DNA of 64,000 nucleotides from contig JACPPG010000030.1 of assembly GCA_016191115.1 (NCBI GenBank), positions 62,001-126,000 on the forward strand, written 5' to 3'. How positions within the stretch are numbered: the first letter of the stretch is position 1; each line of letters opens with the position of its first letter. The notes under the pieces were generated by a model that was not told the DNA's origin, did not search any database, and was given only the letters and a program-made list of their open reading frames with translations. Below are positions 24,819-29,397 of the stretch, piece by piece. The stretch comes from Planctomycetia bacterium. Lineage in GTDB: Bacteria > Planctomycetota > Planctomycetia > Pirellulales > JACPPG01. The translations under genes and the position numbers were made by a program.

Positions 24819-24830
24819 GGGCGTCCCACG

Positions 24831-25136
24831 TTATCTCCGATCGCGCCAGTAGTCTTCCCGGCGGCGACTATGCGCGATCGCGAGAATGCGGATCTCCAAA
24901 TCAACAAGCTCGTAGATCACAACGTAGGGAAATCGGTTCACCACAACACGGCGGATCCCTTCGTCATCCGGCATTGTTTCCAATCGCCCAAAGCGGTGGG
25001 GATCAGTTCGGATTCTCTGAAAAGCTGCATCCACCTCCGTGAGGAAATCAACAGCCAGACCTCGCTGGCGACTTTCGTACTACCGGGCGGCTTCGCGCAG
25101 TTCTTTTTCCGCAGCCGCCTCGATACGCAGCTTCAT
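24831..25136 (-). pseudogene. RelE/ParE-family toxin interrupted by an amber codon
   Basis: Read from the ATG at 25136, the frame gives MKLRIEAAAEKELREAAR, then TAG (25080-25082), then YESRQRGLAVDFLTEVDAAF and on to RRVVVNRFPYVVIYELVDLEIRILAIAHSRRREDYWRDR. The frame is the same on both sides, and the TAG stands exactly where ParE proteins have the first Tyr of the usual YYE. Without the stop the product would be 101 aa, a normal ParE length. The ATG overlaps the antitoxin stop (ATGA). The toxin would bind DNA gyrase or act as a ribosome-dependent RNase; here it is probably dead, or made only with suppression of the amber codon. An internal GTG at 25034 could start a 67-aa fragment. Confidence 0.85.
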
Positions 25137-25378
25137 GTCGGCCCCTTGTTGGCGATCGTTTGCCGAAGCTCTGCGAGCACTTCATCCCAGTCGCGAAGTG
25201 TTGTACGACCTTCTCGAATTGCGTCACGACGACGCCGGATTTCGTTGGCCAAAGACTCGTCGACGTCCTCGTCCATGCTCCCCGGCTCCAGGCTCAAGAG
25301 TAACTGGTGTGCAAGCTCAGCCCGCTCGCTCAAATTCAGAGACAAAGCTGCCGTAAGAACGTCGGATAAGGACGACAT
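25133..25378 (-). CDS. Addiction-module antitoxin (TIGR02574-like)
   Basis: An 81-aa acidic protein: MSSLSDVLTAALSLNLSERA, then ELAHQLLLSLEPG and a charged C-terminus with DVDESLANEIRRRRDAIREG and WDEVLAELRQ. This is the usual layout of the short antitoxins found upstream of ParE/RelE toxins. The ATG at 25378 has AGGAGAG upstream on the minus strand. Its stop overlaps the toxin start by 4 bp. As the toxin is interrupted, this antitoxin may persist alone. Confidence 0.83.
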   Translation of the reverse strand: MSSLSDVLTAALSLNLSERAELAHQLLLSLEPGSMDEDVDESLANEIRRRRDAIREGRTTLRDWDEVLAELRQTIANKGPT

Positions 25379-25472
25379 GGGCCTTCTCTCCTGATGCTGT
25401 ACAGCCGGCGCGGGCACTAGCGGACGTCACCAATTGTAGCCTGGGTACTGTGCGATTTGGAGAGCACGTACC

Positions 25473-26787: not shown

Positions 26788-26878
26788 GTAGGGTGCTCTG
26801 CGAGCACCGATCTTGGCACAGGGGCGAAAGCAGGCGAGGATTTCGCCGAGCCGCATTGGTGCTCGCAGAGCACCCTAC
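26788..26878. repeat. Large inverted repeat with 21-bp perfect arms (GGTGCTCTGCGAGCACC type)
   Basis: The 21-bp arm at 26788-26808 is exactly the reverse complement of 26858-26878, enclosing a 49-bp loop. Each arm itself contains the small palindrome GGTGCTCTGCGAGCACC, which recurs at 29319-29335. It lies in the divergent gap between apgM and pgi. Confidence 0.8.
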
Positions 26879-26931: not shown

Positions 26932-27013
26932 GGGGGGCGGGCATCCTGCCCGCCTTCGCGCCGCAAGTGACTCGTGACCACGCAATCGAAGGCGGGCAAG
27001 ATGCCCGCCCCCC
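26932..27013. repeat. Inverted repeat of the GGGCGGGCATC(C/T)TGCCCGCC type
   Basis: The 27-bp arm 26932-26958 is the reverse complement of 26987-27013 with one mismatch; each arm is itself a hairpin (GGCGGGCAxxxTGCCCGCC). Single units of the same repeat occur at 34622-34645 and, split by a mobile element, at about 58175-58360. It ends 21 bp before the pgi start codon. Confidence 0.8.
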
Positions 27014-29261: not shown

Positions 29262-29318
29262 GATGTTGCCCGCCGCAGCGGCGCGGCGATACGGTGAGGG
29301 TGCTCCGCGAGTCGTAGG

Positions 29319-29335
29319 GGTGCTCTGCGAGCACC
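29319..29335. repeat. Palindrome GGTGCTCTGCGAGCACC
   Basis: A third unit of the motif found in both arms of the inverted repeat at 26788-26878, with a degenerate partial unit (GGTGCTCCGCGAG) just before it. It is between the UPF0173 and the DUF6263-like genes. Confidence 0.65.
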
Positions 29336-29397
29336 ATGAGAGTATTTTTCCAAACGTGGACTTTTGACAAACAAAACCAGGAAATCGGGGGTGTCCG

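What the first reader, a model, noticed from the sequence alone, without database searches (positions are those of the whole stretch)
24831..25378. ParE-type toxin with an in-frame amber codon at a conserved tyrosine
The antitoxin is intact, and the toxin frame continues on both sides of a TAG at 25080-25082 that takes the place of the first Tyr in YYE. Tyr codons (TAT/TAC) are one base from TAG. The antitoxin stop overlaps the toxin ATG, as in live modules. Either the toxin was recently inactivated with everything else preserved, or amber suppression gives rare full-length toxin. A 67-aa product from an internal GTG (25034) would lack the N-terminal helix.
Basis: partly seen in the sequence, partly recalled or inferred. 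Interest (0 to 1): 0.6.

Follow-up and report, generated by a model that had tools for sequence, protein, structure and literature searches.

The report
ParE toxin broken by amber codon
A small self-poisoning gene pair that this bacterium gained between two household genes has a stop signal early in the toxin gene, most likely an ordinary recent inactivation, since about one in ten toxins of this kind in related genomes is broken in the same general way while the antidote gene is kept.

Summary
On the minus strand an intact Unstab_antitox-family antitoxin (25378-25133) overlaps by four bases (ATGA) a ParE toxin frame (25136-24831) whose codon 19 is TAG (25082-25080). Read through, it is a good ParE by sequence and predicted fold. 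One detail is probably wrong: the seven closest open relatives all have Trp (TGG) there, so the motif was more likely WYE than YYE.

The best explanation is ordinary nonsense inactivation. TAG is a normal stop here: release factor RF1 is present, no CUA-anticodon tRNA was found among 57, and 10 of 34 long window ORFs end in TAG. Relatives decay the same way: 16 of 150 listed homologues carry in-frame stops, against 0 of 38 antitoxins. All three stop codons occur, about as single-base change predicts, and codon 19 is one of the two most nonsense-prone codons. Two of three sister species with the flanking genes have almost nothing between them; the third has unrelated DNA. Module G+C is 56% against 65%, so it looks like a lineage-specific gain that later lost its toxin.

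Amber read-through is not supported. A base error cannot be excluded without reads. Such decay is already described.

The parts
25133..25378 (-). Intact antitoxin gene, 81 aa, Unstab_antitox family (PF09720; weak TIGR02574)
   Evidence: relatives 57-61% identical beside ParE toxins
24831..25136 (-). ParE-type toxin gene, 101 codons plus stop, interrupted by TAG at codon 19
   Evidence: PF05016, 40.6 bits; fold model and PDB matches
25080..25082 (-). In-frame TAG, codon 19, in the middle of predicted helix 1; Trp (TGG) in the closest relatives
25133..25136 (-). ATGA overlap of toxin start and antitoxin stop
   Evidence: sequence
24831..25034 (-). 67-aa ORF from internal GTG; no family match, lacks strand 1 and helix 1
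24820..25470 (.). Stretch present here; the flanking genes are about 36 and 80 bp apart in sister genomes G002 and G003, and G001 has unrelated DNA
   Evidence: coding part 56% G+C against 65% for the window

Best explanation
This is a horizontally gained type II toxin-antitoxin module whose toxin has been switched off by a single nonsense mutation. A ParE-type toxin gene and its Unstab_antitox antitoxin gene lie between two conserved chromosomal genes (shown: sister species lack the module there; gain rather than loss in the sisters is inferred). A one-base change then turned a codon of the [WY]YE motif into TAG (inferred; most likely at a Trp codon, because the closest relatives have Trp). 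Translation now stops after 18 residues, in the middle of helix 1, so no ParE fold is made and the module should be non-toxic (inferred). The antitoxin frame is intact and may still bind its operator or neutralise related toxins (inferred). The event is recent in evolutionary terms, because the rest of the frame has hardly drifted.
For: Intact frames, overlap and profile fit: read-through score above 86% of 83 open homologues. TAG terminates normally: RF1 at 451 bits, no CUA tRNA among 57, 10 of 34 long window ORFs end in TAG. The same lesion recurs: 16 of 150 listed toxin homologues in the order have in-frame stops, against 0 of 38 antitoxin homologues with an internal stop (one-sided Fisher p 0.023). 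In 29 clean single-stop toxins the stops are 14 TAG, 8 TGA, 7 TAA; one-step mutation predicts 40-45% TAG. Codon 19 is one of the two most nonsense-prone codons of the family. 27 of the 29 have an open upstream ORF in antitoxin position. A relative, G052, holds an antitoxin with no toxin found. Sister species lack the module at this site, and its G+C is low. [quoted passage not shown] ccdO157 decay (PMC2654758).
Against: The closest open relative is only 52% identical, so the age of the stop and the ancestral codon are inferred. No reads could be seen, so the base itself is unverified. Two near-invariant positions also differ (G28A, P94E), which could mean older decay, though 7 of 83 open homologues also show two such departures. 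Stops cluster mildly at codons 18-20 (8 of 29 against about 11-15% expected; p 0.009-0.05, stretch chosen after seeing the data), which pure mutation does not fully predict.
Confidence: 0.86

Rival explanations
1. Base error or minority variant in the assembly: the true or commonest sequence of the population has a sense codon and the toxin is intact.
For: No reads available; the genome is a 93-contig draft. In genomes of 20 contigs or fewer 0 of 23 listed homologues had stops, against 16 of 127 in the others (p 0.13).
Against: Explaining the family-wide 10.7% by error would need roughly 0.7% wrong bases, which the intact antitoxins contradict; a one-contig genome, G568, also carries such a stop. 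None of this tests the window's own base.
Confidence: 0.09
2. Programmed or leaky amber read-through gives a small amount of full-length toxin.
For: The frame downstream is well conserved; a mild excess of stops at codons 18-20 in relatives.
Against: No CUA tRNA found, RF1 present, TAG is an ordinary terminator, stops in relatives are of all three kinds and scattered along the gene, and the closest relatives have a sense codon. Basal leakage of any stop cannot be excluded.
Confidence: 0.03
3. The truncated product from GTG 25034 (67 aa) is a functional small protein, for instance one that binds the antitoxin.
For: It is an open frame.
Against: No family match; it lacks strand 1 and helix 1 of the predicted fold.
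Confidence: 0.02

Closest known systems
ParE toxins of type II parDE systems (Pfam PF05016); closest solved by sequence profile: M. tuberculosis ParE2 (8c26); by fold: 6xrw, 8c26, 5cw7, 7r5a
   Same: Sequence profile, predicted fold, and a gene pair with an overlapping antitoxin
   Different: In-frame TAG at codon 19; the antitoxin is of the Unstab_antitox family (PF09720)
Unstab_antitox (PF09720) / TIGR02574 'addiction module component' paired with RelE/ParE-type toxins
   Same: Antitoxin family and gene order, shared by relatives in the order
   Different: Toxin cannot be translated in full
Decaying chromosomal TA systems, e.g. ccdO157 in E. coli (PMC7167474, PMC2654758)
   Same: Toxin disabled by nonsense mutation in a chromosomal, horizontally gained module
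   Different: Different toxin family and host; here the antitoxin is still intact

Membership tests
ParE toxin (PF05016) | Profile match above the curated cut-off | tested here: met
   40.6 bits against 23, read through
ParE toxin (PF05016) | ParE/RelE fold: two N-terminal helices and a beta sheet | tested here: met
   Model pLDDT 88; E2-5 H7-23 H27-44 E61-66 E71-78 E81-89; top PDB matches are ParE toxins
ParE toxin (PF05016) | Uninterrupted reading frame | tested here: not met
   TAG at codon 19; it is therefore a ParE pseudogene, not a working ParE
ParE toxin (PF05016) | Toxic activity (gyrase poisoning in characterised ParE) neutralised by the partner | not testable with these tools
   Needs expression
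Type II toxin-antitoxin module | Antitoxin gene directly upstream, usually overlapping | tested here: met
   ATGA overlap; PF09720 E 3.9e-13
Stop-codon recoding / amber suppression | Suppressor tRNA with CUA anticodon | tested here: not met
   57 tRNAs, none CUA; genome 94% complete
Stop-codon recoding / amber suppression | Release factor 1 absent, or TAG avoided as terminator | tested here: not met
   RF1 451 bits; 10 of 34 long window ORFs end in TAG
Stop-codon recoding / amber suppression | Same stop codon conserved at the same place in relatives | tested here: not met
   Stops scattered over the gene and of three types; closest open relatives have TGG
Decaying chromosomal TA module | Toxin nonsense mutation with the rest intact, in a horizontally gained insert | tested here: met

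The most novel reading that the evidence does not exclude
In this lineage nonsense alleles of ParE toxins are selected rather than merely tolerated: the pair is kept as an antitoxin-only protection against incoming related toxins, with the [WY]YE codons as a preferred switch-off point (8 of 29 clean stops at codons 18-20).
Probability: 0.08. Interest if true: 0.45.

Novelty: already known. Interest (0 to 1): 0.17.

Why it matters
It shows a toxin-antitoxin module caught soon after its toxin was switched off, with everything else in place. The survey around it gives a figure: about one in ten listed ParE-type toxins in this order has an in-frame stop, while none of the 38 listed antitoxins does. 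That bears on whether chromosomal toxin-antitoxin modules are kept for a function or drift. As a single case it is ordinary.

Tried and rejected
Amber recoding: no CUA tRNA, RF1 present, stop types as one-step mutation predicts. A programmed stop at codon 19: the mild excess at codons 18-20 is weak and was noticed after the fact; codon 19 is a mutational hot spot. Internal start: no family match. Plasmid and viral relatives of the toxin: none found. Metagenome scan: none allowed. Promoter scan: no sigma-70-like site near the module (other promoter types not covered). Defence-system library: no match. Two stops flagged in antitoxin relatives: neither is internal on inspection. The C80:38042 tRNA that ARAGORN did not call reads CGA (Ser) by eye, not CUA. 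Dating by dN/dS was not attempted because the nearest open relative is only 52% identical. A first attempt to hand in this report was malformed and returned nothing.

Full report
Observation. On the minus strand, an 81-aa antitoxin gene (25378-25133) is followed with an ATGA overlap by a toxin frame (25136-24831). Codon 19 of that frame is TAG (25082-25080) and the frame ends in TAA. The antitoxin matches PF09720 (E 3.9e-13). The toxin, read through, matches PF05016 ParE_toxin (E 3.9e-10, 40.6 bits, cut-off 23); the 67-aa ORF from GTG 25034 matches nothing. A structure prediction of the read-through protein (12-row alignment, mean pLDDT 88) gives a ParE fold whose best PDB matches are ParE toxins (6xrw, 8c26, 5cw7, 7r5a). 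A sequence profile search also finds M. tuberculosis ParE2 first (8c26, E 3.9e-9). Codon 19 lies in the middle of helix 1 (residues 7-23), so the product made under normal termination is 18 residues long.

The lost residue. In 83 open homologues the column is W in 67 and Y in 14. The seven closest open relatives shown all have TGG. This is an inference, because no relative closer than 52% was found.

Is TAG a stop here? RF1 is present (451 bits, cut-off 423). Of 57 tRNA genes none was found with anticodon CUA: ARAGORN typed all but one, and the untyped one reads CGA by eye. A pattern for a CUA anticodon followed by a T-loop gave four places; the only one inside a known tRNA gene is tRNA-Arg(UCU). 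Ten of 34 long ORFs of the window end in TAG. The genome is 94% complete, so a missed tRNA is possible but unlikely.

Relatives. In 397 genomes of the order, 142 hold toxin relatives at E <= 1e-6; 16 of the 150 listed matches carry in-frame stops (counted by hand). The same search with the antitoxin gave 38 matches, two flagged with stops; on inspection neither is internal. Toxin against antitoxin: one-sided p 0.023. With class-wide searches added, 29 clean single-stop toxins were picked by hand from the alignment. Their stops are 14 TAG, 8 TGA and 7 TAA, close to what one-step mutation of the open homologues' codons predicts (TAG 40-45%). Codon 19 is one of the two most nonsense-prone codons. 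Eight of 29 stops fall at codons 18-20 against 11-15% expected (p 0.009-0.05 depending on the mutation model), but that stretch was chosen after seeing the data. 27 of the 29 have an open upstream ORF in antitoxin position; the one at L190 does not look like an antitoxin. One relative (G052) has an antitoxin with no toxin match behind it.

How recent. The read-through protein fits the family profile better than 86% of open homologues. It departs at two near-invariant positions (G28A, P94E); 7 of 83 open homologues also have two such departures. Little decay has followed the stop.

Where it sits. In the same genus, G002 and G003 hold both flanking genes (the phosphoglycerate-mutase-like neighbour is 83% and 81% identical) with about 36 and 80 bp between them. 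G001 (80%) has about 530 bp there with no toxin or antitoxin match. The window has about 650 bp. The module's G+C is 56% against 65% for the window. Both facts point to a lineage-specific gain; loss in the sisters is less likely given the composition, but not excluded.

Mechanism. A horizontally gained toxin-antitoxin module lost its toxin by one nonsense mutation; the antitoxin frame persists. Shown: the stop, the intact antitoxin, the absence of the module at this site in sister species, the family-wide recurrence. Inferred: single-base origin at a Trp codon, lack of toxicity, any residual antitoxin role. Decay of chromosomal modules through nonsense mutation is described (PMC7167474; PMC2654758), so the kind is known.

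Limits. No reads were available; a base error remains possible (about 9%). In genomes of 20 contigs or fewer, 0 of 23 listed homologues had stops against 16 of 127 elsewhere (p 0.13; counted by hand), so part of the family-wide rate may come from draft assemblies, although a one-contig genome (G568) also carries one.

Noticed in passing
L073 513-851 (G000:C55:93112-93450): A second PF05016 frame in the same genome, beside an antitoxin-like ORF, with an in-frame TAA at about codon 46; the other seven PF05016 matches of the genome have no flagged stop.
   Followed up: partly
L108 (G000:C80:36500-38474): A dense array of about 14 or more tRNA genes in 1.5 kb at a contig end, like the tRNA arrays of mobile elements or phages; no CUA anticodon.
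   Followed up: partly
L205 and L059 (G012:C286:1-2700): Two related ParE/antitoxin modules in tandem, one toxin with TGA at codon 7, the other a C-terminal remnant with TGA at the conserved Trp 97.
   Followed up: partly
L216 (G052:C138:13604-13831): Antitoxin about 60% identical to the window's with no ParE match downstream: an apparent orphan antitoxin.
   Followed up: partly
window 26788-26878 and 29318-29336: A palindromic repeat, GGGTGCTCTGCGAGCACC, occurs as a 24-nt inverted pair and again 2.5 kb away, both between genes; possibly a dispersed repeat of this genome.
   Followed up: no
window 26932-27013: A 27-nt inverted repeat (96% complementary, 28 nt between the arms) just in front of the glucose-6-phosphate-isomerase-like gene.
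   Followed up: no
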